Assembly (NCBI GenBank): GCA_003024785.1 | Contig: PUQB01000065.1 | Location: 453,050-517,049 of the forward strand | Length of the DNA stretch: 64,000 bases | Direction: 5' to 3' | Source: Selaginella tamariscina | Lineage: Eukaryota; Streptophyta; Lycopodiopsida; Selaginellales; Selaginellaceae | Shown: positions 5,279-64,000 of the stretch, piece after piece | How the letters are laid out: each line of letters opens with the position of its first letter | Numbering within the stretch: the stretch's first letter is position 1 | Made by a program: the position numbers and the translations under genes | The notes under the pieces: generated by a model | Told to the model about the DNA's origin: nothing | The model's input: only the letters and a program-made list of their open reading frames with translations | Databases searched by the model: none

Positions 5279-5332
5279 GAAAAACACGAAAAGGAAAAGG
5301 CGGAAGAAAGGAATACCCAACTTCTCCACCAA

Positions 5333-37746: not shown

Positions 37747-37786
<40 letters not shown>

Positions 37787-37899: not shown

Positions 37900-37937
<38 letters not shown>

Positions 37938-38052
37938 TTTTCTGTCATATAAAGCTGTATATGGCAGCAGTTTGGAAATGTAACAGATGTAGCTGAGAAT
38001 GGTAAACTACTATGAACTACTTGGAAATACATGTTATATATGTACCTGCGTG

Positions 38053-38090
<38 letters not shown>

Positions 38091-38231
38091 TGGAGAGAGA
38101 GAGAGAGTTTTTTGTCATATAAAGCTGTATATAAAACGGACAGAAACGGCAGCAGTAACAGATGTAGCTGAGAATGGTAAAACTGTTATGAACTACTTGA
38201 AAATACATGTTTATATGTATCTGCGTGCCTT

Positions 38232-38270
<39 letters not shown>

Positions 38271-38460
38271 GTTTTCAGTCATATAAAGCCGGCTAACATA
38301 TGTGGTAAACTACTAAGAACTACTTGGAAATGCATGTTTATATGTAGCTGCATGCCTTTGTGTGTGCGTGCGTGCGTGTGTGTACCTTCTTTGATCTTGT
38401 CCAGTGCCTGGTTGAGAGATTTCTCACGATGGCTATTCAACCACTGCAAAACATTTCGAT

Positions 38461-39248: not shown

Positions 39249-40805
39249 TCAGAGATCTGACCTGAAGGACTCCATGTGCATATTGAGAGCTTTGAGCTTC
39301 TTGTTTATTTGCTTGGCCTCCATCCTCCTCGTCTCCTCACCACACTCCGAATCAGTCCACACTTGAGCTGCCCCACTTCCTTCTGTCACTCTTGCTCTCT
39401 ACCAAACCTCTTTCCTTCATCAGCTTCCTTACCCGGTCGAGATCATCCAGCAACCCCTCCCGAGCATAGAAGTAACACAGAAGAGTGTACGCACTGCACT
39501 CGTCCGGGTCCATCTCCATCACCTTCCTTGCTACTCTTACTCCGCGGTCTACATCCCATGTAATTTACATGCACCGAGCAGACTCCTCCACACGCACGCA
39601 TCAACCGGGAAGTTCATCTGTAAAACAAGCTGTTCTGCATCCTCAAGTCGCCCAGCTCTCCCCAGTACATCAACAACGCAGTAGTAATGCTCCTTACAAG
39701 GACTAACTCCATACTCCCTCATCAACAGTAGATACCTGCACGCCTGCTCCACAAACCCACCACGGTTGCAGGCTTGCAACACAGCCGAGAAGCTCACCCT
39801 GTTCGGTAAAACACTGCTTCTGCACATCTCACTAAACATCTCAAGAGCCTCCTGTACATGCCCATGTTCTGCATACACCGTAACCATGGTGTTCCACGAA
39901 ACCACGTTTTTGTCTTCGATTGCATCGAAGATCTCTCTAGCTTGCTCCAAGCAGGTGAATCGCGAGTAGAAATCAATCAGAGGGTTGCACACTACAGCTG
40001 AACTTCCATATCCGCAAGTAATCCGCTCATGAAGAGCCACACCATCCTGAAAACGAGTCACTGCCGGCAACACAGCACTGTAACTCATCCCGTCCGGTTG
40101 CATCCCTTCGACGTCAAGCTTACGGAACGTCTTCAAAGCCTTGTTGGTATGCCCGACTTGGGCATATGCTGCAATCATAGTGTTCCACGAAACCAGGCTC
40201 TTCTCACTGAGACATTCGAACAGATATCTTGCACGTCCGATGCATCCGCATTTCGCATACATGTTAAACACTGCAGTGGCCGCAACAGTGTCTCCGGCGA
40301 ATCCAGAAGCGACCACCCACTCGTCTATCTTCTTTCCCTCTGAAAGATTTTTCAGATTTGTGCATACGCCCAGGATCTCTATGAATGTGATCCTGTCCGG
40401 AGAAGCCTCACCGAGCTGGTTCATGAGCCAGAAGAGATGCAATGCCTCTGGGTTATGCCCATTCTGGGCATACGCTCTGATCATCAGAGTCCAAGAGAAG
40501 ACATTCCTTACTGCGATCTGATCAAACACCAATCTTGCGTCTTGTGGGCTGCCGCATTTGCCATACATTTGCACCAGAAGATTTGAGAGGTACCTGTCGT
40601 CGCCCTGCCCATGTTGTACAATGTGTTCGTGTATGCGTTTCCCTTGTGCTAGGCTTCGTGTTCTTCCGCATGAACTCAGGAGCAGCTCGTATGTACTGAA
40701 GCTAGCGCCACCGAGAAGCTCCTCAAGTCGATCTGGTAAGTCTGTTGTACTCTGCGAAGAATGCGTTTTCCATATCAAACAGGGCTCTCGGATTCCTGCC
40801 GCCAT
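39249..40805 (-). CDS. Pentatricopeptide repeat (PPR) protein, PLS/E type
   Basis: An intron-less frame begins at the ATG at 40805. It contains successive PPR motifs such as LSNLLVQMYGKCGSPQDARL, NVFSWTLMIRAYAQNGHNPE, VAATAVFNMYAKCGCIGRAR, SLVSWNTMIAAYAQVGHTNK and NVVSWNTMVTVYAEHGHVQE. It ends in an E-type region with HYYCVVDVLGRAGRLEDAEQ and VWRSLLGACKLHG. The current frame stops at 39549, but the next frame continues an E-motif (DPDECSAYTLLCYFYAREG) and then ends near 39249, so one G is probably missing at 39555-39557 and another base near 39370. PLS-class PPR proteins bind organellar RNA and often specify C-to-U editing sites. There is no DYW domain. Confidence 0.88.
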
Positions 40806-44764: not shown

Positions 44765-45170
44765 CTATGAAGTAGCTGCAGCCACGGTTGTCTTGCGTTT
44801 ATTACTCATCTGTATTAAATCTATGACAATCTCTCTCTCTCTCTCTCTCTTCTCTCTCTATATATATGTATATATATGTATGTATGGTATTTATTTGTAC
44901 CACCCACACACCTCATAAGTGCATACAATGGCAATGTTCTGTAGCTGCTAAGGACGAGCATAATTACCCTGTGGAGATAATACACACATTATGCTAACTT
45001 AAACATATTAATGTAGATGTTAAACATACCCGATTACCAAGCGTGCAATTCCAAAATTAACCCTGTCCCTGAAGCAGGAACGGAAACCAAATTGTATATA
45101 CAAAAGTATTTAATTAGTTTTTTCTTTACACTCCTCGTGTGTGTGTGTGTGTGTGCGCGTGTGCATGTGT

Positions 45171-45210
<40 letters not shown>

Positions 45211-46134
45211 TAACTTACCCAAAGCGACGGAGAAGGCAAGTTCAAATGCATTCTGCAAAAGTGAAAATATTGTATGATTAGTTAATGAATGATAGTTGTG
45301 ACTATATTAATATATTACCTGAAATAATATGAAATGAAGAAAATAGATAACTAATCTTGGCTTTTTGAACCAAAAAAGATCGTCACGTAGATAAACTACC
45401 ACATTCTTTGCACTTTTCTGTTCTTCAGCAATCTCAAGGGCAAGCTCCACTATTACATGGTGTAGTTTGCAACCAATTATAAGCAATAACTGCAAACAAG
45501 ACATTGTTGTGTGTGTGTGCGTGTGCGTGTGTGTGTATGTGCGCGTGTGTCGACTATATGAAACAAGAAGTTATACCGTCAATGGTATAAATCCGATCCA
45601 AAAGTCTGTAAATGTATATAATATAAATAAAGAAAATAAAACTATAATTACCATGTACATTAAGAAGAACATATATCACAAGAGAAAAGCACTGCATGAT
45701 TAACGCACATTAGAAATAAAATATCAATTAATTAAGCGATTAAATAATTTTGTAATAATATTTATTCCCACAACTTTCTTAAAGTCGTCTTCGACAGCAC
45801 GAAGGATGTATTCGTTTAAATCAAAATTGTTTCTCAGCTTGTGAATCTGTTAAGTATGAGTGATTATGTTAAAATAATTTTAACCTGATATGTAGAAGTT
45901 GCCTAATAATAAATTTATTAATGTTAATTAAGTTTTCCCATAAAATCATAACTTATATTAATGCTTAAGAGTACCTGAATAAAGCTACGGCGAAGAGTCC
46001 TATATTCTGTGTATGTAACCCCACGGAACTGCCCAATAAATGAAAACTGGAATTAACAAATTACCTTAATTAATTATATATAGAGAGAGATATATAAATA
46101 TATATAGATATACATACATACATACACACACATG

Positions 46135-46189
<55 letters not shown>

Positions 46190-47328
46190 GTGTGTGTGTG
46201 TTGTGTTTTAAAACATTATATTAAGTATGATCACTTCACTTACTATCCAGCTAACGAATGTAGACGTGTGCCGCGCGTGTTTTCCAAAAACGAGCTTGTG
46301 TTTTGAGTGGGTTCTCTACAGCTGCACATCAAAGCTTATATGAGGTGCGTGCGTGCGTGCGTGCGTGGTTGTGGTGTGGTGTGTGAGAGAGAGAGAGAGA
46401 GACATATATTACATATATGGCATGTTGTTTTTATTGATTACCAGGGGTGTCCTGTGCAAATTCAGACTGTGCTCTTTTTCCCAGGTATTCCACCCATGTA
46501 CCTGTAATGGTGTGTGTGTGCGTGTGTGTTGATATATTTAAATTCTTTATACACTGTTGCTGGCTAATAACAAGACAATGCAACTGTATGCAATGTGTCC
46601 AATAGCCAAAATAAAGATGAAGATGTGTAGCTGATGAACACCATGGGCAGAAATGAAAGGTACTTTACCCTGAAAACATTGTACACTAAAGTAATTATCA
46701 AGTTTTAATAAATTTATACTCTTAATAAAGCATATTTATATTAAACATTAATTAATTGATATTAACATATTTAACCTTGCTATAGCATTTTGAAGGTGCA
46801 CTTTCTCCACCAGCTAGAATCCTTCTGGTGTGTTCTTCCATAAACATTAGCCTTCTTGAATGTGAGTTGAGGTGAAGCTCTTCTGCTTTGTTAGCCTTAC
46901 AAGGCATTTGTGCAGTAAAGGTCGCTGGCATGCATATCTTGCTTAGAGATGACTGTAGCACAGTCATTAACAAAGAAATGAATCCCAGTAGGATAAGTTC
47001 TACAAATATATATGTTAAAAGCATAGAACTAGGAATATAAATTTCTTATACATCAATAACATAATGTACCGTCTTTCATCTTCTCTAATGCTTGACTGAG
47101 CGATTTCTCTGGTCTCTTTCTCACCCACTGGAATGTTGTACGCTGTGCTCTTAGTTATTACTCGAATTAAGATCGCATTATTATGTAAATATTAATTACC
47201 TTCCCAAGAAAGTGAATTCCTCGCTCCAGTACGAGTGAAATCACGATGAGAAGCAGGTACACAAGCGCCCATGTCATTGTGACCTCCAGAGAGCCACTGT
47301 TCAAGTCTTTGTTACTCTGTCCTGCCAT
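44765..47328 (-). pseudogene. MLO-family copy MLO3, probably decaying
   Basis: The start at 47328 gives MAGQSNKDLNSGSLEVTMTW with the first membrane segment. Exons align one-to-one with MLO4: SHSRRLMFMEEHTRRILAGG (46800-46870), YLRDDLFWFKKPRLVIYFLH (about 45330-45400) and LRTLPLYALM-like sequence near 44925-44950. Compared with MLO4 it has deletions at exon edges near 45600, 45665 and 45768, and at the donor of the last intron (44909-44912), where CCAG and most of the intron are gone. Its last exon keeps only KRKTTVAAATS and then a TAG at 44765, where other copies have a Gln codon. These are larger changes than the single-base breaks elsewhere, so a real pseudogene is likely. Confidence 0.7.
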
Positions 47329-47334
47329 GAACAA

Positions 47335-47449
47335 CACCACCTTCAAAGCCAGACGTATTTCATACGTCTGGATATTATATCAGACGTATTTAATACGTTA
47401 ATATATACGTCAGAACGTCAGATGCTGACATATATATATGAATATAAAA

Positions 47450-47491
<42 letters not shown>

Positions 47492-48390
47492 ATACACACA
47501 CACACAAGCACGTCCTCTATCACTATGATAAACATGCGTAACAAGTTTGAACTACAAGTCTTAGATAATCTATTAGACTTGACTTGACTTGATTTAAATA
47601 AGGGGATTGTATGTCCTTATTACAGATTGATCCTATTGTGTTAACGATTTATAAAACAAATAACATCAATATATTTTGATTTTATAATTATTTTTATAAG
47701 GTAATTCTTATTTTATTTTTATTTTAACTATAATTATATTATTATACTAAATACATTACATTATAATAAAATCACATTGCTTATTCTAACATTAAATCTA
47801 TAAATTAAGATTTTAATTATAGAATAGTGGGATTTTGAACTCTGAACAAATCTTAATTTAACATTAAATTAAATAAATTCATCATGAATTTACAATAATA
47901 CTATTTATAACGTCTCAAATGATGTCGTAATGAATCCACTAGTTATTTCCTGGTCGACTTTCCTTCTAGTTAATTTCTGGGTCACGTAACTGGTCCTACT
48001 TGCGGGGACACTTGCCCCATTTTTAACGTGTTAGATATTAGCCACGTGTAAATAATTAATTATTATTAATCATAAATTAGTTACATTCCAGCTTCCTTTC
48101 ACTAACGGTGATTATTTAACCTTGATAAAATAAAAACATGCCACATCATTAATAGTAATTATCATTATATTTTTCCACTAGAATAGTTAATTGAATTAAA
48201 AATAAATTATTAATGCATAATTTCTATTTACCCAGTTACTAAAGAAGTTTTTACGTATGTATGTTACACAATACATATGCAATAAATGTGTATTTTTAAT
48301 TAAAAAATATATGAAAACTTCAATTCTTTAGTGCTTATATTGTTATTTTCTTAAGTTGAAACATTAAATATAATTTACTAGTGTGTTTCT

Positions 48391-48432
<42 letters not shown>

Positions 48433-48884
48433 TAGACAATGTATACATATACATATATATTATACACAAACAGACAGAAAGAGAAATATTTTTTAGCTGT
48501 TACATACTTTAATATAATATATTATATGTATATATAATACATACATATATAATTATATGCTCATGTATATACATAAATATATATATGTTTATTTATACAT
48601 AAGTATTGTTTATTGTCACTCTATTTATACATATAGATATGTAAATTTTGATGTGTACACACACACACACATATATATGTTTAAATTTAAATATAGCATT
48701 GTGCATATTCTTATTAATTTCTTACAAAACTTATGTCATTTTTAATTTAAATAAATCAACATTACGCATACACATCTATATGTGTGTGTTATAGATAATA
48801 AACTTAAACTATGCATATAATTATTCACATTAATGCCTTTGTTGATATTCTTTCTACAAAATAAATAATTAAATATATCAATGT

Positions 48885-48949
<65 letters not shown>

Positions 48950-49590
48950 CATTTTTCATCAATTTATTTTTGAAGTTATAAACAAGATAACTTAATTAAT
49001 TAATTTTAAGACACATCTTGTTCAGTGGCCATATAATCAGACAAAATTGCCCAGTTATTTAACTATTGTGGAAAAAGCTACACAGGCTATGTAAATTATT
49101 AATAATAAATAATTCACATGTGAAAAAACAAATCCATAGTAAAATAAATAGATTATTATTTTTTTTTTTGACGCAATTAACCACCTGGTTTAAATGAACC
49201 TTATTATTTATTAATTTAAATTTGAATTATATGCCTAGTTAAATGACATGTCTGACATGTAAAAAAATGATAATGTTACCGGTTAATAGGTTAATTTTGT
49301 TTTATATTGTCCTCATACTATTGTTGTTTTTTATTTATAAATCACCATCGTATTTAAGCGGTAGAATCAAAATATATAAATATTTATTTTTAATTTTTAT
49401 AAAAAGATAATCACACGAAACAGGTCGAATCTCATTAAAAATATAGAAAGTGATAACCAAATAATATTTATGTTTCCTAAATCGAGACAATAAAAGTATA
49501 TAACAGCTAAATAACTTACCACATGCGTCTAAACTAAATAAAATTTAAAGACTAAACTTATAAACAAATTTATCATTCCAAACTTTTATT
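47335..49590. other. Intergenic half of the MLO duplication unit, copy A
   Basis: No gene is visible. The region aligns in order with 52470-54790: a TACGTCTGGATATTATATCAGACG-type palindromic stretch just upstream of the MLO start, CACGTAACTGGTCCTAC, TTTAAATATAGCATTGTGC, AAGACACATCTTGTT and AAAGTGATAACCAAATAATA. Long AT microsatellites lie at 47456-47490, 48396-48431 and 48891-48943. Confidence 0.75.
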
Positions 49591-49592
49591 CT

Positions 49593-49738
49593 TCATGCGA
49601 GTAGTTCGATCCCTTGTGAAGTAGCTGCAGCCACGGTTGATGTCTTCTTGCGTTTGACATTGTTATGTAAGCTTGTTAATGCACTTTTAATCTCTTCACC
49701 AAACTTGAAGTTATCACCCATCTGTAATTAAATCTATG

Positions 49739-49801
<63 letters not shown>

Positions 49802-49953
49802 GGTATTTATTTGTAACACCCACACACAGATAGCATATTACTATAGAACTTTAGTATATAGTTAAAACATAGAAGTAAATAACATATACAGCACCCACTA
49901 CTGGTACATACATATCAGAACATGCACAGTTTGTGAACAAACAACATTATTGT

Positions 49954-49998
<45 letters not shown>

Positions 49999-50240
49999 CA
50001 CACACACACATACCTGGCTCATAAGTGCATACAATGGCAATGTTCTGTAGCTGCTAAGGACGAGCATAATTACCCTGTAGAGATAATACACACATTAAGC
50101 TAGCTTAAACATATTAATGTAGATGTTAAACATACCCGATTACCAAGCGTGCAATTCCAAAACTAACCGTGTCCCTGAAGCAGGAACGGAAACCAAATTG
50201 TGTCTATACAAAAGTATTTAATTAGTTTTTTCTTACACTC

Positions 50241-50305
<65 letters not shown>

Positions 50306-51311
50306 ACTTACCCAAACCCAGACAAAGAAGGCAAGTTCAAATGCATTCTGCAAAAGTGAAAATATTGTATGATTAATTAATGAATAATAGTTAGTATATA
50401 ATTAATATAATTATTGTATGATGTATATATATTACCTGAAATAATATGAAATGAAGAAAATGGATAACTATTTTTGGTTTTTTAAACCAAAAAAGATCGT
50501 CACGTAGATACACTACCACATTCTTTGTAATTTTCTGTTCTTCAGCAATCTCAAGGGCAAGCTCCACTATTACATGGTGTAGTTTCCAACCAATTATAAG
50601 CAATAACTGCAAACAAGACATTGTTGTGTGTGTGTGTGTGCACGCGCATGTGCGTGTGTGTGTATGTGCGCGTTTGTCGACTATATGAAACAAGAAGTTA
50701 TACATACCACCAATGGTATAAATCCGATCCAAAAGTAAGTGTACCAACCTGTAAATGTTCATATTAACTATATAAATATAAATAAAAAAATAAAACTATG
50801 ATTACCATGTACATTGAGAAGAAAAATATCACAACAAACACCCAGAGAAAAGCCCTGCATGATTAACGCAAATTAGAAATTGAGTATCAATTAATTAAGT
50901 ATTAAATAATTTTGTAATTAACATTACCTTATTCCCACAACTTTCTTAAAGTCGTCTTCGATAGCACGAAGGATGTATTTGTGAAAATCAAAATTGTTTC
51001 TCAGCTTGTGGTTCTGTTAAGTATGAGTGATTATGTTAAAATATTTTAACCTGATAGTTTTTAAACATAGTTTCAAACATTATAGTTATTAATGTTAACT
51101 AAGTTTTCCCATAAAATTAACTTATATTAAAATTATTAATGCTTAGTACCTGAATAAAGCTACGGCGAAGAGTGCTATATTCTGTGTATGTAACGCCACG
51201 GAAATGCCCAATAAATGAAAACTGGAATTAAAAAAATTACCTTAATTATATATATCTACAGTGTTATATATATATATATATATATATATACCATACATAC
51301 AACATATATTG

Positions 51312-51373
<62 letters not shown>

Positions 51374-52466
51374 CTTTTAAAACATTATATTAAGTACGAT
51401 CACTTCACTTACTATCCAGCTAACGAATGTAGACGTGTGCCGGCTTCTGTTCGCGTGTTTTTCCAAAAACGGGTTCTGTTGATTGAGTGGGTTCTCTACA
51501 GCTGCACATCAAAGCTTGTATGAGGTGTGTGTGTGTGTGCGTGTGTGTGTGTGAGAGAGAGAGAGAGAGACACATATATACATATATGGCATGTTGTTTT
51601 GTTGATTACCAGGGGTGTCCTGTGCAAATTCAGACTGTGCTCTTTTCTCCCAGTATTCCACCCATGTACCTGTAATGGTGTGTGTGTGTGTGTGTTGATA
51701 TATTTAAATCTTTATACCTGTAGTCTGGCTAATAACAAGACAATGCAACTGTATGCAATGTGTCCAATAGCCAAAATAAAGATGAAGATGTGTAGCTGAT
51801 GAACACCATGGGCAGAAATCAAAGGTACTTTACCCTGAAAACATTGTACGTTAAAGTAATTATCAAATTTTAATAAATTTATATTCTTAAATATTAATTA
51901 ATTATATTAACATATATAACCTTGCTATAGCATTTTGAAAGTGCACTTTCTCCACCAGCTAGAATCCTTCTTGTGTGTTCTTCCATAAACATTAGCCTTC
52001 TTGAATGTGAGTTGATGTGAAGCTCTTCTGTTTTGTTAGCCTTACAAGGAAGCATATGTGCAGTAAAGCTCACTGGCATAATATCTTGCTTAGAGATGAC
52101 TGTAGCACAGTCATTAACAAAGAAATGAATCCCAGTAGGATAAGTTCTACAAATATACATGTTAAAAAGCTTCTTATACATCAACAAAAGTATATAATGT
52201 ACCTTCTTTCATCTTATCTAATGCCTGACTGAGCGATTTCTCTGGTCTCTTTCTCACCCACTGGATTGTAGTTTTAATTATTATGATAAAAATCAGATTA
52301 AGATCGTATTATTATGTAAAATCTTAAATACCTTCCCAAGAAAGTGAATTCCTCGCTCCAGTACGAGTGAAATCACGATGAAAAGCAGGCACACAAGCGC
52401 AAAGGCCCATGTTGGTGTGACCTCCAGAGAGCCACTCTTCAAGTCTTTGTTACTTTGTCCTGCCAT
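49593..52466 (-). CDS. MLO-family protein MLO4, the most intact tandem copy
   Basis: The start at 52466 gives MAGQSNKDLKSGSLEVTPTW and ALVCLLFIVISLVLERGIHF (membrane segment 1). Further exons include SHSRRLMFMEEHTRRILAGG (51960-52010), [18 protein letters not shown] sequence (51730-51790), VYLRDDLFWFKKPKIVIHFL (50460-50520), ELALEIAEEQ (50535-50570) and YRTLPLYALMSQ (50014-50060). The last exon starts MGDNFKFGEEIKSALTSLHN at 49722, continues NVKRKKTSTVAAATS and stops at 49593. The tail carries the amphipathic ALTSLHNNVKRKK segment expected for calmodulin binding. Splice sites are present at most exon edges. Confidence 0.85.
49743..49801. repeat. (TC)n(AT)n microsatellite in the last MLO4 intron
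   Basis: The same compound run occurs at the same intron position in MLO3 (44830-44880) and MLO5 (54881-54955), in different lengths. Confidence 0.9.
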
Positions 52467-52469
52467 GAA

Positions 52470-53497
52470 CAACACAAGACACCTTCAAAGCCAGACCTAT
52501 TTCATACGTCTGGATATTATATCAGACGTATTTCATACGTCTGGGATAAGATATATATGAAACACAAGTACACAATAAGTCCTTTATCACTGTGATAAAC
52601 ATGCGTAACAAGTTTGAAAACTTTGATTAATAAGTATAGATTTTGCACGTGATATTCTTCTTGACAGTAACTGTCAAGAAACATATCACCACAAGTCTTA
52701 GATAATCTATTAGACTTGACTTGATTTACTTAAGGGATTGTATGTCCTTATTACATATTGATCCTATTATGTCAACGATTTATAGAAAAATAACATCAAT
52801 ATATTTTAATTTTATAATTATTTATATAGGTAATTCTTGTTTTATTTTTATTTTTAACTTATATATTATATAATTTAATTTTAAATATAATACATTACAT
52901 TATAATAAAATCACATTGCTTATTCTAACATTAAATCTATAAATTAAGATTTTAATTATAGGACAGTGGGATTTTTGAACTCTGAACAAAATCTTAATTT
53001 AACATTCAATTAAATAAATTCATCATAAATTTATAATCATACTGTTTATAATCTCTCAAATAATGTCGTAATAAATCCACTGGTTAATCTCCTGGTCGAC
53101 TTTTCCCTCTAGTTAATTTCTCGCTCACGTAACTGGTCCTACCTGCGGGGACACTTGTCCCTTTTTTAACACGTGTTAGATATTAGCCACGTGTATATAA
53201 TTAATTATTTATTAATAATTAATTAGTTACATTCCATCGTATTTAAGTTTTAAATCCTTAACTTAGCTTACTTTTCACTAGAGTAGTTAATTGAATTAAA
53301 AAATAAATATTAATATATAATTTCTATTTACTTAATTATTAAAGAATTTTTTAAGTATATATTTATATAATACATATGCAATAAATATGCACTTACTCAA
53401 TATTTTTAATTAAAAAATATATTAAAACTTCAATTCTTTAGTGCTCATATTGCTATTTTCTTACGTTGAAACATTGAATATAATTTACTAGTGTGTT

Positions 53498-53545
<48 letters not shown>

Positions 53546-54790
53546 TATTATAGACAATGTATACATATACATATATATTATGTAGACAAAAAGAGAGATA
53601 TTTTTTAGCTGTTACATACTCTAATATAATATATTATATGTATATAATACATACATATAAATTATATGCTCATGTATACACAAATATATATATGTTTATT
53701 TATATATAAGTATTATTTATTGTCACTCTGTTATATATATAGATATGTAAATTTCGATGCATGTACACACACACATATATATATATATAATTAAATTTAA
53801 ATATAGCATTGTGCATATTTTTATTAATTCCTTACAAAACTTATGTCATTTTTAATTTAAATAAAACAACATTACACATACACATTTGTATGTGTGTTAT
53901 AAATAATAAATTTAAGGCATGCATATTATTCACATTAATGTCTTTGTTGATGTTCTTCTTACAAAATAAATATAAGTATATCAAATGTGTTTATATTTAT
54001 ATATATATAATATCATATTTCATCAATTTATTTTTAAAGTTATAAACAAGATAACCTAATTAATTAATTTTAAGACACATCTTGTTAATTTATATTCAGT
54101 AACCGTATAACCAAACAAAATTGCTTACTACCATGGAAGAAACTACACAGGTGGTATGTAAATTATTAATAATAAATAATTCACATATGGAAAAACAAAT
54201 CCATAGTAAAATAAATTTTTTTGTTTTTAGTTATATTGGTTGAGGCAATTAACAACCTGGTATTGAAAAGTGGACCTTATTATTTATTAATTTAAATTTG
54301 AATTATATGCCTAATTAAATGACATGTCATATTTTAAATGTGACATGTAAAAAAACGATAATGTTACCAGTTAAAAAAATTGGTGAAAACTGAATCACCA
54401 TCGTATTTTAGTTGTAGAATCAAAATATATAAATATTTATTTTTAATTTTTATAAAAAAGATAATCACACGAAACAAAGATATAGAAAGTGATAACCAAA
54501 TAATATTTATGTTTCCTAAATCCAGACAATAAAAAGTATATAACACCTAAACAACTTACCAAATACGTCTAAACTAATAAAGACTAAAATTATAAACAAA
54601 TTTGTCAACCCATCAGATGAAAAGGTTTCTTTTTTATTTAAAAATAAATAAATTTGTCATATAAAGAGAAAACAAAAAATACAACTTTTTAAAAGAAAAT
54701 ATAGAATTATATGAAATGTTTGCATGTAATACAATATATATTTTCATGTGAATGTCTGTAGCAATATATTAATCAAATATTAGTGTGTAT
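52470..54790. other. Intergenic half of the MLO duplication unit, copy B
   Basis: No gene is visible. The sequence runs parallel to 47335-49590 with scattered indels. It includes an AT microsatellite at 53503-53548 and a perfect inverted repeat near 52660-52683 (TTCTTGACAGT/ACTGTCAAGAA). Confidence 0.75.
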
Positions 54791-54793
54791 TCT

Positions 54794-54873
54794 TCATGCG
54801 AGTTCGATCTCCTGTGAAGTAGCTGCACCCACGGTTGTCTTGCGTTTATCACCCATCTGTATTAAATCTATGA

Positions 54874-54959
<86 letters not shown>

Positions 54960-55136
54960 ATATTTATTTGTACCACCACACACAGATAGCATGTCACTTT
55001 AGTGTAGTTAAAAACATTGAAGTAAATAACATCAAAACATGCACAGTTTGTGAACAAACAACATATTTGTAAATACTCTCTCTCACACACACAACATACC
55101 TGGCTCATAAGTGCATACAATGGCAATGTTCTGTAG
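54794..55136 (-). pseudogene. MLO5, C-terminal fragment cut by a transposon
   Basis: The last exon here is MGDKRKTTVGAATSQEIELA with TGA at 54794. Compared with MLO4 it lacks about 20 residues (NFKFGEEIK...LHNNV). The preceding exon, LPLYALMSQ, runs into the transposon at 55136 in the codons for the SYRT motif. The other part of the gene resumes at 62960. Confidence 0.82.
55128..55136. repeat. 9-bp target-site duplication, left copy
   Basis: GTTCTGTAG here is repeated at 62960-62968. The undisturbed MLO4 sequence at about 50040 reads AATGTTCTGTAGCTGC, which proves the empty site. Confidence 0.92.
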
Positions 55137-55240
55137 GAGGATTAGCAAAAACCGGCTTCGTACAACGGGCTTTTCGCATATTCTCGAATATCCAGGAATA
55201 TTCTGTCAAATAAACGGGAATATTCTAGAATATTCTGCGA
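55137..55240. repeat. Left terminal inverted repeat with GAATATTC cluster
   Basis: It pairs with 62860-62959. GAATATTC-type words occur at about 55176-55190 and 55195-55204, and as a perfect double unit GAATATTCTAGAATATTC at 55218-55235. Confidence 0.75.
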
Positions 55241-55307
55241 AGTAGATTATCTTTAACTTTCAATATAAATGCCGACCAACAAGTGAAAACGCTAATTAAT
55301 TTGCCGA

Positions 55308-58300
55308 CTAGACTTTACTATACCGACTGGACTTAAAAAGTCGCAGGTTCGACATTGCGCTTGCAATCAACCAATAACCGATGCACTTCTGCTGGAGTAA
55401 GGGTCCGCCTCTGTAAGAAGTAAGTAATCGTTGGGTCAATCCAAGAACATGAGTGTACACAAAATACATGTGTTGGCAGGGGCTCCAGTTCTTGGCTTTC
55501 TGAAAAGTTGCACAAGTGCATGACGGAACAGTAGAAATTGTTACCTTAGCAGATTGCATGCCTGCAGAGACAATGAAGGCCTCAGTCTTCCCTCTTTGAA
55601 CCACCTCCACGTTGTTGATCCGACCTTGAAGAATCTTTGCCTGGTTGTAATGTTTCTCATGTTCCTTGGACATTCTTGTTGGTGTTCGCACACTCCGTCC
55701 ATGGTATGTTGGTACTCTATGTGCTCCCTCTCCTCTTGGTGGTGATGGTGTTCGATCCATTCGGCTACTACTGTCGTCTACCATTTCTTCAAATCCCTCC
55801 AACTTGAATCCTGCTTTCAGAAGAGCTTCAACCTCATTTGCATTCAAGTTTGTTCCTTTTTGAACTGGCCAAACCTCTGGAACTTCTGGAATACTCTCAG
55901 GAGGAATCCCTGCATATGGTCGTCTGAAGCAACAAGAATCGCGTGGGCAGAACCATAACATCTGATGAGTGAACTCAATGTTCCCAAATGCATTTGTATA
56001 TTGCCGTCTACCGTGAAATCCTGGTGCCGGTACACGATGTGGATATCCTATGGGTCTGCCACACTTGCTGTTACCGTCCTGAGTGAGACCTAGACATTTC
56101 ACCTGACTTGCCTCCCCAATGCGTCTGATGGCCCACTGAGTCATCAACGTCTCTCTTTCAGTGACATTGACATCTTGAAACTTGAGTTTTTTCCTGCGTG
56201 CATTTGGGATGACTTGTTCTGCATATTGTGTGTCATGTCTATGTGTACGAAGTGCATCAATCCCATGGTCCCCAGTTGACGGTTGACGAACGGTTCGAAC
56301 ACGAACATTTGTTGTAGAGGCAAACTCTGGACTTGCAAGATGCTCTTCATCACTAACAAGATTTGCAAAAGTTTTTGGAGACACTGATTTTCCCGCTGAA
56401 AGTTTCTGCTGTGCACGTTTCAGAAGAGTTTCCATGGAAGGACCTGTGCCTGAATATCTCCCTTCAAATGATGCCTTGACCTTTGCACTTTGGAAAACAG
56501 CATCTGTTAAATCTAACATTGTTGCCTCCAACAAAGGAACACGCTTCGTCAGCCTTGCTCTTCGTGCTCTTGCATGAACAACTTCGGAGTTGTTAGTGGT
56601 AGGCACATTCGCAACACCATCTTCTGTCAAGTCAATTATCTCTGTCATGGAAATATGATCTTCATGTCTTGCCCACCATGACAGCCATGTTTGCAAAGCG
56701 CTAACGTTACTGGACCTGCCTTCCCAAAATGACTCCAACATTACTCGTCGTTCCAACTTATCTTGGTTGGTTAGTGCTGCAGGCCATGAGCGTGCAAGGT
56801 TCATGTGCTCCTCCCTGTGTTCCTCAAGTATCCACTTCTTTGTAACTTGACGCACTGACTGCATGTAATGGAACAAACAACTCCTTTCTCTTCCTTCATC
56901 TTTGACCCATTGTTGAAAACTTGACGCAATGCTAACCAAATTGCACCTGACTCATCTGACATGAACCCCGCAAAGTTCACATTATGAAGTCCTTGCTTGC
57001 TGCACACTTGAAGCATAGTGTTCAAAAATTTGATCACCGCCACACTATCCTCCCTGATCATGTCACCATAAGCAAGTGTCACCATCGACCTTAAACTACA
57101 CAAACATAAGTGCATTATATTAGTAAGTATTTTAAAACATAGATATGTTAATACTTACAATGGATCATAGAGATGTATTCCCAGTGTACACCAATCATCA
57201 ATACGATATGTGTGGTCTAGCACCACCCACTGCTGTTCGAGATCACCTCCAGATTGACACCTTCTAATGTAGTCTATTCCGGATCCTGGGCCGGCAACCG
57301 TCATTTTGAAGATTAAAGGCTGCTCTTCAGCTCCGTTGAGGTCCATTCCGGGTATGTGGATAACATGTATGAATGGGATTGATAGCTTCTTCTTTAACTG
57401 CAGAAGTCCTTCGTAACCTTCTTTGAAACGAGTGTCTCTTGTTCTAGCCTGAGATATCCATTCTCTTGTTCTACAGGAAAGGTTAAGCATCTCCAAAAGG
57501 AAATAATAATTTTTTTGCTTACCGGCGGTGATTTGTGAGTGGTAGTAGATCTGACAGAACCTTGTCGTATGATACATCTCCAGAATCTGTTACCAGTTTT
57601 TCCAAAATTATATTGCGTGCTGCTTGAAACTCTATGACACGTTGATTAGTTCTTGGGGTTGCAGCGACTGCTTTGTTGATTGTCTCCTTAGCTCTGTCTT
57701 TAGAGACCATGGATTCGGGTGGTCTACGTGGGTGTTGATGTTCTCCAAGATGGATGAAAAGCCTCGTGCATGTGATATCATCTGGAATTATGTAATATGC
57801 AACAACGGAGCATGTCTGCACTAGAAGGGGCTCATTGTTGCAATGCACACACTTCATTCCAAGCACTCTACCATCTGAAGATAACTGGACTTTATCAATG
57901 GTGCCCTTAAATTGGCAGTCATTTGCTTTCTTACTGAAGCTGATGAACGGACATGTTTCCTTTACGCATTTCATGTGGCCAATACATGAACTGCGACTAA
58001 CACGAGCTGGAACATTCCAATGTGTTGTGCAGCGTTGAGTCCAGTAATCACACCCATCCTTCCTATTCATCCCTTTGTACTTGTCCTTCATTGTTTCGTG
58101 TGCTGGCAACTCGTAAATCACATTTCCGTTGCAATCTTCTGGGACCTCAGCAACTTGCTGAATCGATGACGAGACCACCAGTTGCTTCCCAATCCTACAT
58201 CTCTGACTATTGCGAAGTATTGTTACCATAGAATTGTCCCGATCTGTTGTCTCCAACCGGAATAGCGGTCCTTTGGAAGGAAGAAGTGTGTAATACACAA

Positions 58301-58502
58301 AACTGCTAGCTCTTGCCCCTTCTGGTTCTACCTCAACATTCGCAGCATCTCCACCAACAACAGACATCAAATGCAGCACTTTAAAAGATTGCCAAGGTGG
58401 AATGTCAAATGCAGACCTGAGATCTGTTTCAAAGACAAATGCAATACCATCTTCATCTGCAGGGAAGTCCTTGTCAACACCATTGTAGCTGATTCTTGCC
58501 AT
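55308..58502 (-). CDS. MULE transposase with WRKY-GCM-like zinc finger, DDE core and SWIM finger
   Basis: The start codon at 58502 gives MARISYNGVDKDFPADEDGI. A Cys/His-rich region (about 57720-57970) has CVKETCPF, CQFKG, CVHCNN and HLGEHQHPRR, which resembles the WRKY-GCM1 fingers of Mutator-type transposases. The catalytic part has WVVLDHTYRIDDW (57190-57230), NFAGFMSDESGAIWLALRQV (about 56915-56975), CLFHYMQSV (about 56870) and a Glu-rich WILEEHREEH (about 56830), a plausible DD..E arrangement. Near the C-terminus CTCATFQKAK...CQHMYFV (55460-55530) is a SWIM zinc finger (CxC...CxH). Introns lie near 57480-57530 and 57100-57155. A single-base break near 56890 separates GSKMKEEK from RSCLFHYM. 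The gene is divergent from the methyltransferase gene. Confidence 0.85.
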
Positions 58503-58980
58503 GTAGCAAAAATGGAACAAACAAAAGTTAAAATTCAAAGACAATGAACATATTACACACGATGGTTAATGTGTTTGTTAGTCGTGAGGCAATCATTTCA
58601 TTGACAAATATTAAAAATAATATTAATTGCGTGCGTCTGGGTAGAAGAGTGAAATTAATTTACTGCGTCTGGGTAGGTTTTTTGTAAATTAAAAAGTTTT
58701 ACTATGTACAAGTGGCGATCATGCATGCAATATGTTTACAGAAATTAGGTTGGTTTTTAATTGATTTAGGGCGGCTAGGGTTTTGCAATAGGGCGGGGCG
58801 GCTAGGTTTTCGTGGAGCAGGGGCATTTGGGGGCATAGCGTGGAGCAAGTGTGGCTCCAGGGATTAATCACAATAGGCTTCCATTGAGGGGGTGAGTATT
58901 TTCTGATTTCTTCATGATCTGCTCATGATCTTTTCATGATCTGTTCATCTTTTTACATCTCTTCACAGTTGCAAGAAATC
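58503..58980. promoter_or_regulatory. Left part of the divergent intergenic region of the MULE
   Basis: No gene is visible. It contains CGGGGCGGCTAGGTTTT-like repeats (58770-58815) and CATGATCT-type words repeated three times near 58910-58940. It probably holds the transposase promoter. Confidence 0.45.
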
Positions 58981-59384
58981 CGAGTCGGCCTGCCGACTCG
59001 GACTGACTTCGTTGTCCGTCCCAGTCGGCAGGCCGACTGGGGTGGACTGTTCCAGATCCAGTCAACATTTTGACCGGGGTTGACTGTTCCAGCCCCAGTC
59101 AGCATTTTGACTAGGGTTGACTGTTCTAGTCCCACCTAGCATTTTGACTGGGCCTTGCTTCGTTCCCAGTCCAGTCGGCATGCCGACTGGGCCCCCTTTG
59201 TTGCCAGTCCAGTCGGCATGCCGACTGGGACTCCCTTTGTTGCCAGGCCCAGTCGGCATGCCGACTGGGCTCCCTTTGATGCCAGTCCCAGTCGGCATGC
59301 CGACTGGGCTCCCTTTGTGCCAGGCCCAGTCGGCATGCCGACTGGGACTTACAGCAACTGCTCTCTCAGTCGGCACGCCGACTG
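58981..59384. repeat. 11-unit array with 18-bp palindromes, 37-40 bp period
   Basis: Unit starts are at 58982, 59022, 59059, 59096, 59133, 59172, 59210, 59250, 59289, 59327 and 59367. Five units (59172-59344) hold the perfect palindrome CAGTCGGCATGCCGACTG. Those at 58982, 59022 and 59367 have one or two changes, two of them keeping near-perfect symmetry. The three middle units (59059-59150) have a degenerate form with CATTTTGAC. Spacers share CCCTTTGTTGCCAG. The array ends 86 bp before the methyltransferase ATG. Confidence 0.95.
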
Positions 59385-59469
59385 TGAGGGCTAGTATGTT
59401 TTTTTAATTTTTATTAAACATCTTTGAACATTTATTACAGTTTTTTGTTAAACCTTATTGCTTTTGTAG

Positions 59470-62400
59470 ATGCGCTCTTCACAACGTTTACAAGAAAAGA
59501 AGATGAAGGAGCCTACTGAGAGAGAAGCAGAAGCTAGAGCTGCAATTCAGAGAGGGCGTCGGGGTCGTGGGAGAGGAAGTAGGAAGCTGGCTGTGGTTCA
59601 GGAACAAGGACCTTCAAGTGATGCTCCAGTTGAACAGGCAAGCCAGCAGGACTGGTCAGGAGAGCAAGAGGATGTAGTTCAACCCCAACAAGAACAATCA
59701 GACTTTGTTGAAGAAGTTGAGGATGATGTCTTACCACAGGAGACACAGGAGCAGACAGAAGGCACACAAGCCTCATGCGCAGTGACTTTGTCGAGTGACG
59801 AAGAGGATGAACCCAAGAACAAGAAGAGACGACGCAAAGCTGCTGGAGATTCAGAGGCTGCTAAGAAGAAGAAGAAGGGTAAAGCAGAAGTGCCAGATAA
59901 TGAGGAAGTTTACAACATTGCAGCCAGCATGCATTCGGAGAGTGCAGTGCGTCTTCTCGCGAAGATCACAATCCGAGAATATGGAGAGGCACCGGATGTC
60001 CCTATTTGCCGAATTCTGGGAAATGAGCAGGTGCGGAGAGTCAATCCAGCGGATCTGGAATCTTTGACTAGGAGTTTCAAGAAGGCAGTTGGTTATTTGC
60101 GCAACACCACTCAGTTCATCCTTCAAGTTGGGGACCCCATGACAGATGCAGATCTGGCAGCATTGAGAAGCGATGAAGCGATGTATGCTCAGCATTTGGC
60201 TTTTGAGGAGGAGCTTCAGTCTGACATGTTCCGGCAATGGGCACCAATGCTTTCGATGAAGAAGTTCATCTGTTGGGATGGTAATCACAGGCTAAAGGTG
60301 CTTCAGAAGCTGTACACAGAAGACACGGAAGATAAGAATCAGTGGGCAGTGAGAGTGCGTTCAGGCTTCATCCGTGCTGGGGTCATGGATAATCTTCAGC
60401 TTGTGACAATGTTTCAGCAAATTAATAGGTAAACATAGTGACCTCTAGATCATAGGATTAACTAACTTCGAGATTTTCAAATATGCAGTTCCTCCGCAAC
60501 GGCAGTGCAAACCACACTGCCACATCTTCTGCTATCTGTGAAGACATGTTGCACCAGTGAGGAGGGCACAGCGAAGATCTTGGCCAGGCTCAGTGACAAG
60601 GAACGAGATGACATAAGAAAGTGGAAGGAAAGCGCACTGGACAACAAGCTTGGCATCCACTTCCGAATTTGATCTGTGCAAAGATTTTTTTGAGGTACCA
60701 CGTCTCACACTTATATTACTTAGTTGATTACGTCTGTGAATTACAGAGTGAGATTGAGGATGATCTTGAGAAGGCTGCAAGGGCATCCAAAGGCAACAAA
60801 TACCAGGAGCAACAACAGGTCTACATTAAGCATGACAAGCGCATGATGAAGATCTTAGCCATCATCGATCCTGCATTGGGTGAAGAGTGGTTCGACAAGG
60901 TGACCCAAATCACATGGAAACAATGCAGATGGATGGGGTTGGAAAAGCTGTACGCGCTTTCAAGGGCGAGAATTCCAAACGAGACGAGAATCATGTACTT
61001 CAATAAACTGGTACGTCTCGATCTGAAGAGAGAGCAAGAGACACTTGGATTGCCGGGTGTTCAGGATAAGGAGTGGATAAGGTGGTTTACTATCGATTTG
61101 TATTGGCGGGCATCAGAGAGGAGGCAGTACAGATTCTCACGGGACTCATCGAGGATGGCGAGTGGACAGGCCGGTTACAGATTTCACGACTTGGTACGAT
61201 GAAGTGCGGGTAAAATGCAAGAACGTGATGTTCCAGCCATTTCCATGAGTGTGTGAAGTTCACTTACTCCATAGAGCCGAAAGAGTTCCTCGAACACGAA
61301 GAGACAGCAAGAAGGATGATTTGGAGGTAAGGATGATCTTCTTGACATTGTTACATTCTGACACTACTATATGTTCATTACAGGTATGTCGCAGCGAGAA
61401 AGGTGCCTCACACACAGACTATGGTATTCTGGTCAGATTACATGGAAGCACCACACATGTGGTCGAAGACAAGATCTGGCCTGACAGAGTTCGACGTGTA
61501 ACGTACCGTTCTGGCTTGATTATCCACCTGGGCAACCACCAACATGGGAGAAGGATCTCTACAATGAACACTCAAAAGATCTCCCATGCATCTCATGGGA
61601 TCCGGCAGAGGTCGACTTCATTAAGAAGACAAAGGCCAAGGCAAAGCGGCGTCAGCCTGTGCAGCAGTCAAAGAAGACCTCAGATACAGTAGCTGGCACC
61701 TCCACTACTCGCGATCCAGCTGCCTTCTTCAATTTATCTGAAGTGCTACCATCGCAGGGAACCATGGACATCAAGGATGACTTGGTCACATTCGTCCCTT
61801 CACTTGCTACAACTCGAGGTGATAATTTCTTGGCGATTGATGACATCGAGGAGATGCAACAGGCCGTGCTCACGGATGAGAAGGAAGAGGAGGTTCCTGA
61901 CGCTAGACTGGTTCCTTATAGAAAAGTTCAGACACAGGTGGCCAGGTACCATACAGCTGACAGCCAGACTCGCTACCAGCATATTGCGGGAGAATATGGT
62001 TTCAACTTGGTGATCTTCGACCTTCCAAATGGGACCTTGCCAGGAAATACAACGAGTGATACGCCATACCTCTACCTTGATCCAGTGAAGTTCGATGAAG
62101 CACTCCAGTTTGCAGGTATGCATATGGCTGCAAATGGTTGGTTGGTTGTGTTTGCTGCAGCAAACACCTGGGATCAAGTTGTCCGAGCTGCAAGTGTGGT
62201 GGACCTTCAACTTGCTGCAACGTACTACATCTACAGAGGGCGTGGTTGGGGCTACCGCAACAAGATGAAGGTACTTTTTTCTTTATTCATGAAGTTCATT
62301 AATGATTTTTGATGTTTTAACAGGAGAGCATCCTGCTCCTTCTTGTCTTCCAAGATGCATCTAGAGGATTGCGCGATAATCGCTGCGTTTGTCATCAACA

Positions 62401-62785
62401 ATTCTTGTTGATAATCCTGAGCGGTTCCAAGAACCATGGTAGGCATTTCATTTCAACAATTTAAGTATTTACCATTATCTTCACATGCAGGATGGACTAC
62501 CAACCGAAGAGCACTCGATTGATGCAGCTCGTGATAGAACGACTCACCCGGCCAGGTGATCTTATCTGGGATATAGGCAGTGGTACGGGGTCCTCAATGC
62601 TTGCAGCTATCGAGCTGGGGAGAAACATTGTTGGGACTGAGAAGAACCCTGAGCTCGGGAGAATTGCTATGAACAGGATTAAAGAGAACATCCAGCCAGA
62701 GGAAATCCCAACCCAACCAATAGCGACGTCAAGTAGGACTGGTGGTTCACGAATTGCAGCATTGCTCAATCGTAAGAAGAAGTGA
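59470..62785 (+). CDS. ParB-like domain fused to beta-class DNA amino-methyltransferase
   Basis: The ATG at 59470 opens a basic/acidic N-terminus with RRGRGRGSRKL (AT-hook-like) and an NLS-like KKRRRKAAGDSEAAKKKKK (about residues 117-136). A ParB/Srx-type domain follows: EQVRRVNPADLESLTRSFKK (60030-60090) and KKFICWDGNHRLKVLQKL (about 60260-60312), with the DGNHR core. The middle exons (60743-61200, 61200-61650) hold long helices I do not recognise. The methyltransferase has a motif-IV position reading LVIFDLPNGTLPG (about 62005-62045), ANGWLVVFAAANTW (62135-62175), then motif X/I after an intron: YQPKSTRLMQLVIERL and GDLIWDIGSGTG (62495-62590). IV before X-I is the beta-class order of N6-adenine/N4-cytosine methyltransferases. 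Frame changes occur near 60664, 60688, 61080, 61200, 61250, 61500 and 62400. Confidence 0.78.
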
Positions 62786-62859
62786 CAAGTGTTGAAATAA
62801 AACTTTAATAATACAGTATAAACATGGCTATGATTTAAATATTTTTTGTTGTTAATTGC

Positions 62860-62959
62860 CGACTGAGAATATTTAGGAATATTCTAAGAATATTCTGGTA
62901 GATTCTTTAGAATATTCGGGTCCAAGCCCGAAGCCCGGAAGCCCTCTTTTTGTGGACTC
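62860..62959. repeat. Right terminal inverted repeat with GAATATTC cluster
   Basis: Its reverse complement starts GAGTCCACAAAAAGAGGGC. GAATATTC words occur at about 62880-62887, 62891-62898 and 62911-62918. Confidence 0.75.
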
Positions 62960-62968
62960 GTTCTGTAG
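62960..62968. repeat. 9-bp target-site duplication, right copy
   Basis: GTTCTGTAG matches 55128-55136, and MLO5 sequence continues directly with CTGCAAAGGACGAGC. Confidence 0.92.
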
Positions 62969-64000
62969 CTGCAAAGGACGAGCATAATTACCCTGTGAAG
63001 ATAATACACACATTATGCTAACTTAAACATATTAATGTAGATGTTAAACATACCCGATTACCAAGCGTGCAATTCCAAAACTAACCCTGTCCCTGAAGCA
63101 GGAACGGAAACCAAATTGTGTCTATACAAAAGTATTCAATTAGTTTTTTCTTTACACTCCTCATGTGCGTGCGTGTGTGTGTGTGAGAGAGAGAGAGAGA
63201 GAAACTTACCCAAACCCAGACGAAGAAGGCAAGTTCAAATGCATTCTGCAAAAGTGAAAAATATTGTATGATATAGTTAATGAATAATAGTTAATATAGT
63301 TAATATATTATTATAGTTAATATTATATGATGTATATATATTACCTGAAATAATATGAAATGAAGAAAATGGATAACTAGTTCTGGTTTTTTGAACCAGA
63401 AAAGATCGTCACGTAGATAAACTACCACAATCTTTGCACTTTTCTGTTCTTCAGCAATCTCAAGGGCAAGCTCCACTATTACATGGTGTAGTTTCCAACC
63501 AATTATAAGCAATACTGCAAACAAGACATTGTGTGTGTGTGCGCGTGTGTGTGCGCGCGCGTGTGTTGACTATATGAAACATGAGTTATACATACCACCA
63601 ATGGTATAAATCCGATCCAAAAGTACCAACCTGTAAATGTTCATATTAACTATATAAATAAATAAAGAAAAATAAAATTATGATTACCATGTACATTAAG
63701 AAGAACAAATATCACAATAAACACCCAGAGAAAAGCCCTGATTAACGCACATTAGAAATAGAGTATCAATTAATTAAGTGATTAAATAATTTTGTAATTA
63801 ATATTACCTTATTCCACAACTTTCTTAAAGTGGTCTTCGACAGCACGAAGGATGTATTTGTGAAATCAAAATTGTTTCTCAGCTTGTGGTTCTGTTAAGT
63901 ATGAGTGATTATATTAAAATTATTTTAACCTGATAGTATTTTAAACATAGGTTTCAAAACATTATAGAAGTTTGCCTGATAATAAATTATTAATGTTAAG
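62960..64000 (-). pseudogene. MLO5, upstream part, running off the window
   Basis: Exons align with MLO4 at 50040-51080: a block with GNRVSFG-like sequence near 63060-63120, ELAFFVWVWV-like sequence near 63210-63245, VYLRDDLFWFKKPELVIHFL (63370-63430), ELALEIAEEQ (63445-63480) and a block near 63810-63890. An MLO4 segment around 50733 is shortened here near 63622. The start codon lies beyond the window. The gene is cut in an exon by the MULE and so cannot make a full MLO protein in this allele. Confidence 0.82.

What the first reader, a model, noticed from the sequence alone, without database searches (positions are those of the whole stretch)
55137..62959. MULE transposon carrying a ParB-like/DNA-methyltransferase fusion gene
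The sequence shows a complete-looking DNA transposon (9-bp duplication, GAG termini, DDE/SWIM transposase) with a second, divergent gene. That gene pairs a ParB-type DGNHR domain with a beta-class amino-methyltransferase (IV before X-I). ParB-methyltransferase fusions are known from phages and bacterial mobile elements; I know of no plant MULE that carries one. The protein could mark the element's own DNA with N6-methyladenine or N4-methylcytosine, which would affect silencing, transposase binding or copy counting.
Basis: partly seen in the sequence, partly recalled or inferred. Interest (0 to 1): 0.88.

Follow-up and report, generated by a model that had tools for sequence, protein, structure and literature searches.

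The report
Jumping gene carrying methyltransferase-like gene
A 7.8-kb jumping gene in what is probably a land-plant genome carries, beside its transposase, a second (now damaged) gene for a DNA-methyltransferase-like protein with a possible ParB-like front part; such pairs have been described in algal transposons, so this looks like a new variant of a known kind.

Summary
The element is real. 55137-62959 is flanked by GTTCTGTAG on both sides, and two tandem paralogues of the flank in the same window (44936, 50042) hold that word once, uninterrupted: a 7823-bp insertion with a 9-bp duplication. It has two divergent genes. The minus-strand gene is a DDE/SWIM-type transposase; one distant relative was found. 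The plus-strand gene ends in the X-I-III block of an N6/N4 amino-methyltransferase (PF01555, 6e-10). The ParB part is NOT confirmed: no ParB match in Pfam, PHROGs, NCBIfam or PDB sequences, and a home-made ParB model scores near its shuffles; a DGNHR motif is its main support. This copy is broken (six frame changes in gene 2, one in the transposase), and motif IV reads DLPN instead of DPPY. New here: eight near-perfect 16-bp palindromes between the genes, with the same half-site near both ends. The idea is in print: PMC12477816 describes a ParB-like/methyltransferase gene opposite the transposase in a brown-algal Sola1 element and mentions green and red algal ones. I saw no Mutator-like or land-plant case in the listings that I read.

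The parts
55128..55136 (.). left target-site duplication GTTCTGTAG
62960..62968 (.). right target-site duplication GTTCTGTAG
   Evidence: same word once at the two empty paralogous sites
55137..55244 (+). left terminus: GAG start, GGGCTT-type outer part, GAATATTC repeats
62867..62959 (-). right terminus: CTC end, GGGCTT-type outer part, GAATATTC repeats (imperfect inverted match to the left end)
57522..58502 (-). transposase segment 1 (gene model inferred from open frames)
57158..57469 (-). transposase segment 2, with first candidate catalytic D (WVVLDHTY)
56915..57094 (-). transposase segment 3, with second candidate D (FMSDESGA); matches P0001
55311..56915 (-). transposase remainder after one frame change: C..H, candidate E (NNSEVVH), SWIM-type zinc finger
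58983..59383 (.). array of the 16-bp palindrome AGTCGGCATGCCGACT between the divergent genes: 5 perfect copies and 3 with one mismatch; the main run (59173-59383) is spaced 38-40 bp; degenerate units at about 59057-59152
55271..55328 (+). left subterminal half-sites: GCCGAC at 55271, GCCGACT at 55303, CCGACT at 55323
62858..62864 (+). right subterminal half-site GCCGACT
59470..60428 (+). gene 2 exon 1: charged, low-complexity N-terminus, then the ParB-like stretch with DGNHR
   Evidence: no ParB profile match (5, 7, 42)
60489..60694 (+). gene 2 exon 2, with a frame change between 60630 and 60656
60747..61326 (+). gene 2 exon 3, with frame changes near 61076, 61170 and 61246
61384..62270 (+). 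gene 2 exon 4: frame change near 61499; methyltransferase N-part with DLPN at the motif IV position
62324..62438 (+). gene 2 exon 5, with a frame change near 62400
62491..62785 (+). gene 2 last exon: methyltransferase motifs X, I-III, then stop
   Evidence: PF01555 6.2e-10, phrog_67 7.6e-13, both on 62492-62785
44936..44944 (.). empty paralogous insertion site, single GTTCTGTAG
50042..50050 (.). empty paralogous insertion site, single GTTCTGTAG

Best explanation
A decayed copy of a two-gene, Mutator-like DNA transposon. Gene 1 made a DDE/SWIM-type transposase; the element moved by an insertion that duplicates 9 bp (shown from the empty sites). Gene 2, divergent, made a roughly 1000-residue accessory protein: a front part that may bind DNA (possibly ParB/sulfiredoxin-like; inferred) joined to a permuted amino-methyltransferase (shown for its C-terminal block). 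I think it most likely that one of the two element-encoded proteins, gene 2's the better candidate, recognises the GCCGACT palindromes between the genes and the half-sites near both ends (the sites are shown, the binder is inferred), and that in intact relatives this lets the element mark or regulate its own DNA, as proposed in print for the algal ParB-like/methyltransferase proteins. In this copy methylation is probably lost (DLPN motif, broken frames).
For: Empty sites and duplication. Transposase relative with the same motif order. PF01555 6.2e-10 on the last exon; DNA methyltransferases MboIIA, DpnA and CcrMI among solved relatives at E 0.0005-0.0025 (ribosomal protein L11 methyltransferases score alike, 0.0011-0.0013); a phage phrog_67 methyltransferase aligns from residue 60 to 233 of the 240-residue query (pairwise E 4e-8; E 3e-2 in the collection search). 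Palindrome array: 5 perfect and 3 one-mismatch copies. Half-site GCCGACT near both ends (55303, 62858) and once in the 56 kb outside the element; its core GCCGAC three times in 374 bp of subterminal DNA against 0.007 expected, 0 of 2000 shuffles (core chosen after seeing the sites). Published parallel with opposite-strand 1104-aa ParB-like/methyltransferase protein (PMC12477816, passages).
Against: No ParB profile match. Gene 2 has no relative at E<=1 among the 8000 candidates scored, and exon 1 none at E<=10 among 426. Motif IV is degenerate. Only one copy was seen, so gene 2 as a lasting part of the family is not shown. Nothing ties the palindromes to gene 2 rather than to the transposase.
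Confidence: 0.5

Rival explanations
1. Gene 2 protein is a catalytically dead DNA-binding regulator: it binds the tandem palindromes in non-coding DNA and counteracts host silencing or controls the divergent promoters, as VANC proteins of Arabidopsis VANDAL elements do, without methylating DNA. (A narrower form of the best explanation; the odds overlap.)
For: Motif IV DLPN at the aligned place while the G-x-G of motif I is kept; VANC proteins bind non-coding regions of their own element that are tandem repeats with short motifs (PMC10398659, passages); the array lies in non-coding DNA between the genes.
Against: One copy only, already frame-disrupted, so DLPN may be decay and not the family's state; a DTPY lies 13 residues further on; similarity to VANC was not tested.
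Confidence: 0.22
2. The palindromes and half-sites are transposase-binding sites (as the subterminal repeats of CACTA elements are, recalled); gene 2 has an unrelated task.
For: Half-sites sit near both ends, where a transposase must act.
Against: The main array is 3.6-3.8 kb from either end, between the genes, and the ends carry GAATATTC repeats of their own.
Confidence: 0.25
3. Gene 2 is a one-off captured passenger (Pack-MULE-like) that never served the element and is decaying.
For: Six frame changes in gene 2 against one in the transposase over a similar length; no other copy could be examined.
Against: Opposite-strand arrangement and methyltransferase repeat the published Sola1 case; the palindrome array stands directly upstream of gene 2. 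No in-frame stop had to be skipped inside the chosen segments, but I chose them for that.
Confidence: 0.18
4. The N-terminal part is not ParB at all; DGNHR is a chance motif. (This can be true together with the rest of the best explanation.)
For: No ParB match in Pfam, NCBIfam, PHROGs or PDB sequences; own ParB model: 45 of 2467 scored rows, the query included, at or above the query's 3.0 bits, and two other reading frames of the window higher; hhalign gave no match (all). A DG[NQHECR][HRN]R motif appears in 156 of 20000 shuffles of the whole protein.
Against: The phage protein Blf4, whose front looks ParB-like by eye (DGHNR), also has no ParB hit in Pfam, so a negative profile search says little; published parallel.
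Confidence: 0.3

Closest known systems
ParB-like/4mC-or-6mA methyltransferase gene in Sola1-1_Ec32 of Ectocarpus (PMC12477816, passages) and the green and red algal transposon proteins that it cites
   Same: DNA transposon; gene on the strand opposite the transposase; about 1000-1100 aa; amino-methyltransferase domain; ParB-like part claimed
   Different: Sola1 there, Mutator-like here; 21.5 kb there, 7.8 kb here; brown alga there, probably land plant here; here ParB is not supported by profiles and motif IV is DLPN. Sequences were not compared: I held none of theirs.
VANDAL21/VANC of Arabidopsis (PMC10398659, passages; that VANDALs are MULEs is recalled)
   Same: transposon with an accessory DNA-binding protein and tandem short motifs in its own non-coding DNA
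   Different: the passages seen do not describe VANC as a methyltransferase; motifs differ; function here untested
ParB-methylase proteins of bacteria and phages (Bce_0392, cited in PMC5512222, passage; Methanoculleus virus Blf4, L006; phage vir524, L005, labelled phrog_67)
   Same: amino-methyltransferase with motif IV before X-I and a homologous C-terminal block; ParB-like front in Bce_0392 (as cited) and, by eye, in Blf4
   Different: about 520 residues lie between DGNHR and motif IV here, far fewer in Blf4 (405 aa in all); DPPY or DPAY there, DLPN here
N4CMT of bdelloid rotifers (PMC8885841, passages)
   Same: bacterial-type amino-methyltransferase in a eukaryote, linked to transposons
   Different: a captured gene with a chromodomain and an active SPPY motif; changing it to APPA abolishes activity, which is why DLPN matters
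MuDR and plant MULEs (recalled)
   Same: 9-bp duplication, GAG...CTC ends, DDE with C..H and SWIM
   Different: weak TIRs; no Pfam MULE match; gene 2 not compared with mudrB

Membership tests
Mutator/MULE superfamily | 9-bp target-site duplication | tested here: met
   duplication and two empty paralogous sites
Mutator/MULE superfamily | GAG...CTC termini (recalled as typical of Mu) | tested here: met
   sequence at 55137-55139 and 62957-62959
Mutator/MULE superfamily | transposase matching a Pfam MULE or Mutator profile | tested here: not met
   only SWIM of a transposon-type domain, below the cut-off (0.015 and 0.027; relative P0001 0.0029)
Mutator/MULE superfamily | D-D-(C..H)-E order with C-terminal SWIM (recalled) | tested here: met
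   WVVLDHTY, FMSDESGA, SCLFHY, NNSEVVH, CTC..CQH in this order; all but the first D also in P0001; catalytic roles not tested
Mutator/MULE superfamily | long terminal inverted repeats | tested here: inconclusive
   about 90 bp imperfect; 26 against a maximum of 23 in 500 simple shuffles
ParB/sulfiredoxin superfamily | profile match | tested here: not met
   own model 45 of 2467 scored rows at or above the query
ParB/sulfiredoxin superfamily | DG-x-[HR]-R box (recalled) | tested here: met
   DGNHR at residue 270 of the joined protein; 156 of 20000 shuffles hold a motif of this type
ParB/sulfiredoxin superfamily | fold | not testable with these tools
   structure prediction switched off
beta-class amino-methyltransferase | AdoMet block X-I-II-III placed C-terminal of IV-VIII | tested here: met
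   last exon matches PF01555 positions 165-220 of 221 at E 6.2e-10; the protein ends about 40 residues after it; the IV-VIII part itself is only weakly matched
beta-class amino-methyltransferase | catalytic motif IV (D/N/S)-x-P-(Y/F/W) | tested here: not met
   DLPN at the aligned position; a DTPY lies 13 residues later, out of place
ParB-methyltransferase accessory genes of eukaryotic transposons | opposite-strand gene inside a DNA transposon with both domains | tested here: inconclusive
   position, orientation and methyltransferase met; ParB not shown; no sequence of the published cases held

The most novel reading that the evidence does not exclude
A land-plant Mutator-like element carries a parS-like system of its own: the gene 2 protein loads on the 16-bp palindromes between the two genes and on the half-sites at both ends, bridging the ends and marking the element's DNA (by methylation in intact copies, by binding alone in copies like this one), so that host silencing or transposition is controlled copy by copy.
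Probability: 0.15. Interest if true: 0.85.

Novelty: new variant of a known kind. Interest (0 to 1): 0.55.

Why it matters
If intact copies exist, this would extend transposon-encoded ParB-like/methyltransferase proteins from algal elements to a Mutator-like element of a probable land plant, suggesting that the gene moves between transposon superfamilies. The palindrome array with matching half-sites at both ends gives a concrete, testable binding site; none of the passages that I read mentions one. It would offer a direct test of whether a plant transposon writes 6mA or 4mC on itself or merely binds its own DNA.

Tried and rejected
Other copies in the same genome: the genome search 'own' was asked 14 times and never answered. 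Within the window blastn finds no second copy; its further hits are the palindrome array against itself. Protein relatives: gene 2, none at E<=1 of the 8000 candidates scored; exon 1, none at E<=10 of 426; transposase, 1 of 7345. Viral contigs: five scans of eight allowed, no relative (one search used P0001, another the phage protein P0002). Prokaryote genomes: 43 of 252 matched stretches hold a relative of the X-I block; 0 of 43 reading frames carry DG.[HR]R and 40 of 43 carry SPPF or SPPY. In the listed best matches the block lies mostly at residues 30-180 of 300-480-residue frames, so motif IV probably follows it there, but I did not check its place. They are no evident source. Phage and plasmid tblastn with the ParB-like part: 7 records at E 9-10 and, for exon 1, none. 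Phage tblastn with the methyltransferase part: 584 records at E<=1, none covering 80% of the query. Sequencing error as cause of the frame changes: 6 of 7 places show no run of four or more identical bases, the transposase one shows AAAA; this leans towards real decay but does not settle it. Whether land plants lack 6mA: not tested; in PMC12695648 four terms for land plants had no occurrence. A script error of mine: printed junction coordinates are one or two bases off the splice sites at two introns; the exon borders in this report are re-read from the letters printed there.

Papers: PMC12477816, PMC5512222, PMC10398659, PMC12695648 and PMC8885841, passages only. Iyer 2011 and the Bostrychia paper are not held and are known here only through PMC12477816. 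That I know of no MULE with such a gene in print rests on listings only, several cut: 3 of 3 papers listed; 20 of 45; 20 of 120; 4 of 5; 15 of 218; 8 of 18; 8 of 8; 12 of 12. Most subscription journals are not in that library.
Full report
What is there. The stretch 55137-62959 is an insertion. It is bounded by GTTCTGTAG at 55128-55136 and 62960-62968. The window contains tandem copies of the flanking host DNA (44912-47398 against 50018-52540, 86% identical; 47551-49575 against 52688-54607, 81%). In two of these copies the same place reads GTTCTGTAG once, uninterrupted, at 44936 and 50042; the left flank aligns up to 44944 and 50050, the right flank from 44936 and 50042, an overlap of exactly 9 bases. 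This shows the insertion, its length of 7823 bp and the 9-bp duplication. It also implies that the insertion came after the host duplication, unless the element left the other copies without a trace.

Ends. The element starts GAG and ends CTC. The first and last 200 bases share an imperfect inverted repeat of about 90 bp (score 26; maximum of 500 simple shuffles 23), made largely of GAATATTC words: 6 of the 8 in the window lie in the two ends. Pfam's Mutator and MULE profiles do not appear among the matches of the transposase. Membership in the Mutator superfamily rests on the 9-bp duplication, the terminal letters and the motif order D-D-C..H-E-SWIM (the pattern is recalled), so I call it Mutator-like.

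Transposase. On the minus strand four segments give about 1027 residues with one frame change near 56915. Of 7345 candidates one relative scored, P0001 (644 aa, 27% identical over 54% of the query, E 1.6e-40). It shares FAGFMSDE-GA, the EGRERSCLFH block and the CTC...C-HMY zinc finger and has no Pfam match above a cut-off either (SWIM 0.0029). Whether its contig (5291 bases) holds a gene 2 could not be seen.

Gene 2. On the plus strand, six exons with GT-AG introns of about 52-60 bases (read) give about 1013 residues, but only if six changes of reading frame are bridged (between 60630 and 60656, and near 61076, 61170, 61246, 61499 and 62400). None of the six shows a run of four or more identical bases. 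I chose the segments by eye for open frames and splice sites, so the model is an inference. The last exon is a clear piece of an N6/N4 amino-methyltransferase: PF01555 6.2e-10, above its cut-off, and phrog_67 7.6e-13. Among solved structures the DNA methyltransferases MboIIA, DpnA and CcrMI match at E 0.0005-0.0025; ribosomal protein L11 methyltransferases match about as well (0.0011-0.0013), so that search alone would not tell them apart. The preceding part aligns weakly with a phage phrog_67 protein (pairwise 4e-8, collection-wide 3e-2). At the place of motif IV the protein reads FNLVIFDLPN where the four relatives aligned read DPPY, DPAY, DIPY and DPPY (alignment A1). A DTPY occurs 13 residues later, which is not the usual place. 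In N4CMT of rotifers, replacing SPPY by APPA abolishes methylation (PMC8885841, passages). This copy's protein is therefore probably inactive as an enzyme, even apart from the frame changes.

ParB. Pfam, NCBIfam, PHROGs and PDB sequences give no ParB match; the few weak hits of exon 1 are to other families and below cut-offs. A model that I built from six phage ParB-like fronts gives the query 3.0 bits; 45 of 2467 scored rows (the query among them, from 3000 shuffles) do as well, two other reading frames of the window score higher, and hhalign gives no match. A motif of this type arises in 156 of 20000 shuffles of the protein. Against reading too much into this: the front of the Blf4 methyltransferase, which looks ParB-like by eye (DGHNR), also gets no ParB hit from Pfam. 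The structure tool was off. ParB is thus possible, not shown.

The palindromes. Between the two genes, at 58983-59383, lies an array of AGTCGGCATGCCGACT, a perfect 16-bp palindrome (within CCCAGTCGGCATGCCGACTGGG): five perfect copies and three with one mismatch, the main run spaced 38-40 bp, with degenerate units at about 59057-59152. As a single strand the array folds far better than 100 shuffles (z -15.4), as an array of palindromes would. Its half-site GCCGACT occurs 19 times in the window: 16 in the array, one near each end of the element (55303, 62858) and one elsewhere. The core GCCGAC occurs three times in 374 bp of subterminal DNA, where the rate outside the element predicts 0.007, and 0 of 2000 shuffles reach three. 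Caution: I took the shorter core and the 374-bp stretch after seeing these sites, so the figure flatters; with the 7-base half-site there are two subterminal sites, one at each end. A shared recognition sequence at both ends and between the genes is best explained by one element-encoded DNA-binding protein. Which of the two genes encodes it is not known. Bacterial parS sites are also 16-bp palindromes (recalled), which makes gene 2 attractive but proves nothing.

What is known. PMC12477816 (Ectocarpus transposons, 2025; [quoted passage not shown] Its two sources are not held. So neither the pairing nor the self-marking idea is new. The listings that I saw (several of them cut) show no MULE or land-plant case. 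VANDAL elements of Arabidopsis are a parallel in working: their VANC proteins bind non-coding tandem repeats with short motifs in their own element and remove silencing (PMC10398659, passages).

Host. A PPR gene (PF01535, 2.5e-42) and a Ty3-type retroelement fit a land plant; the species was not determined and 'seed-free' was not tested.

Verdict. A real, structurally complete but coding-damaged Mutator-like transposon with a methyltransferase-derived second gene: a new variant of a known kind, with the palindrome system as its most interesting part.

Noticed in passing
55218-55235: GAATATTCTAGAATATTC is a perfect four-unit heat-shock-element pattern (GAAnnTTCnnGAAnnTTC; consensus recalled); it is the only place in the 64-kb window with a three- or four-unit match (about 0.4 three-unit matches expected from 20 shuffles). 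The left end might be heat-responsive; untested.
   Followed up: partly
44912-55136 and 62960-63967: Tandem copies of a host segment of about 5 kb (mostly 79-89% identical), the third of which holds the element.
   Followed up: partly
2200-5332: Ty3-type retroelement on the minus strand: reverse transcriptase and gag matches.
   Followed up: no
39549-40805: PPR reading frame of 418 aa on the minus strand, the main sign that the host is a land plant.
   Followed up: no
37587-38383: Overlapping direct repeats, 75-78% identical over 340-700 bases.
   Followed up: no
P0001: The only transposase relative found comes from an unnamed contig of 5291 bases; what lies beside it is unknown.
   Followed up: partly
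L006:1228-2442: Methanoculleus virus Blf4 methyltransferase has a front that looks ParB-like by eye (DGHNR) and that Pfam's ParB model does not report.
   Followed up: partly
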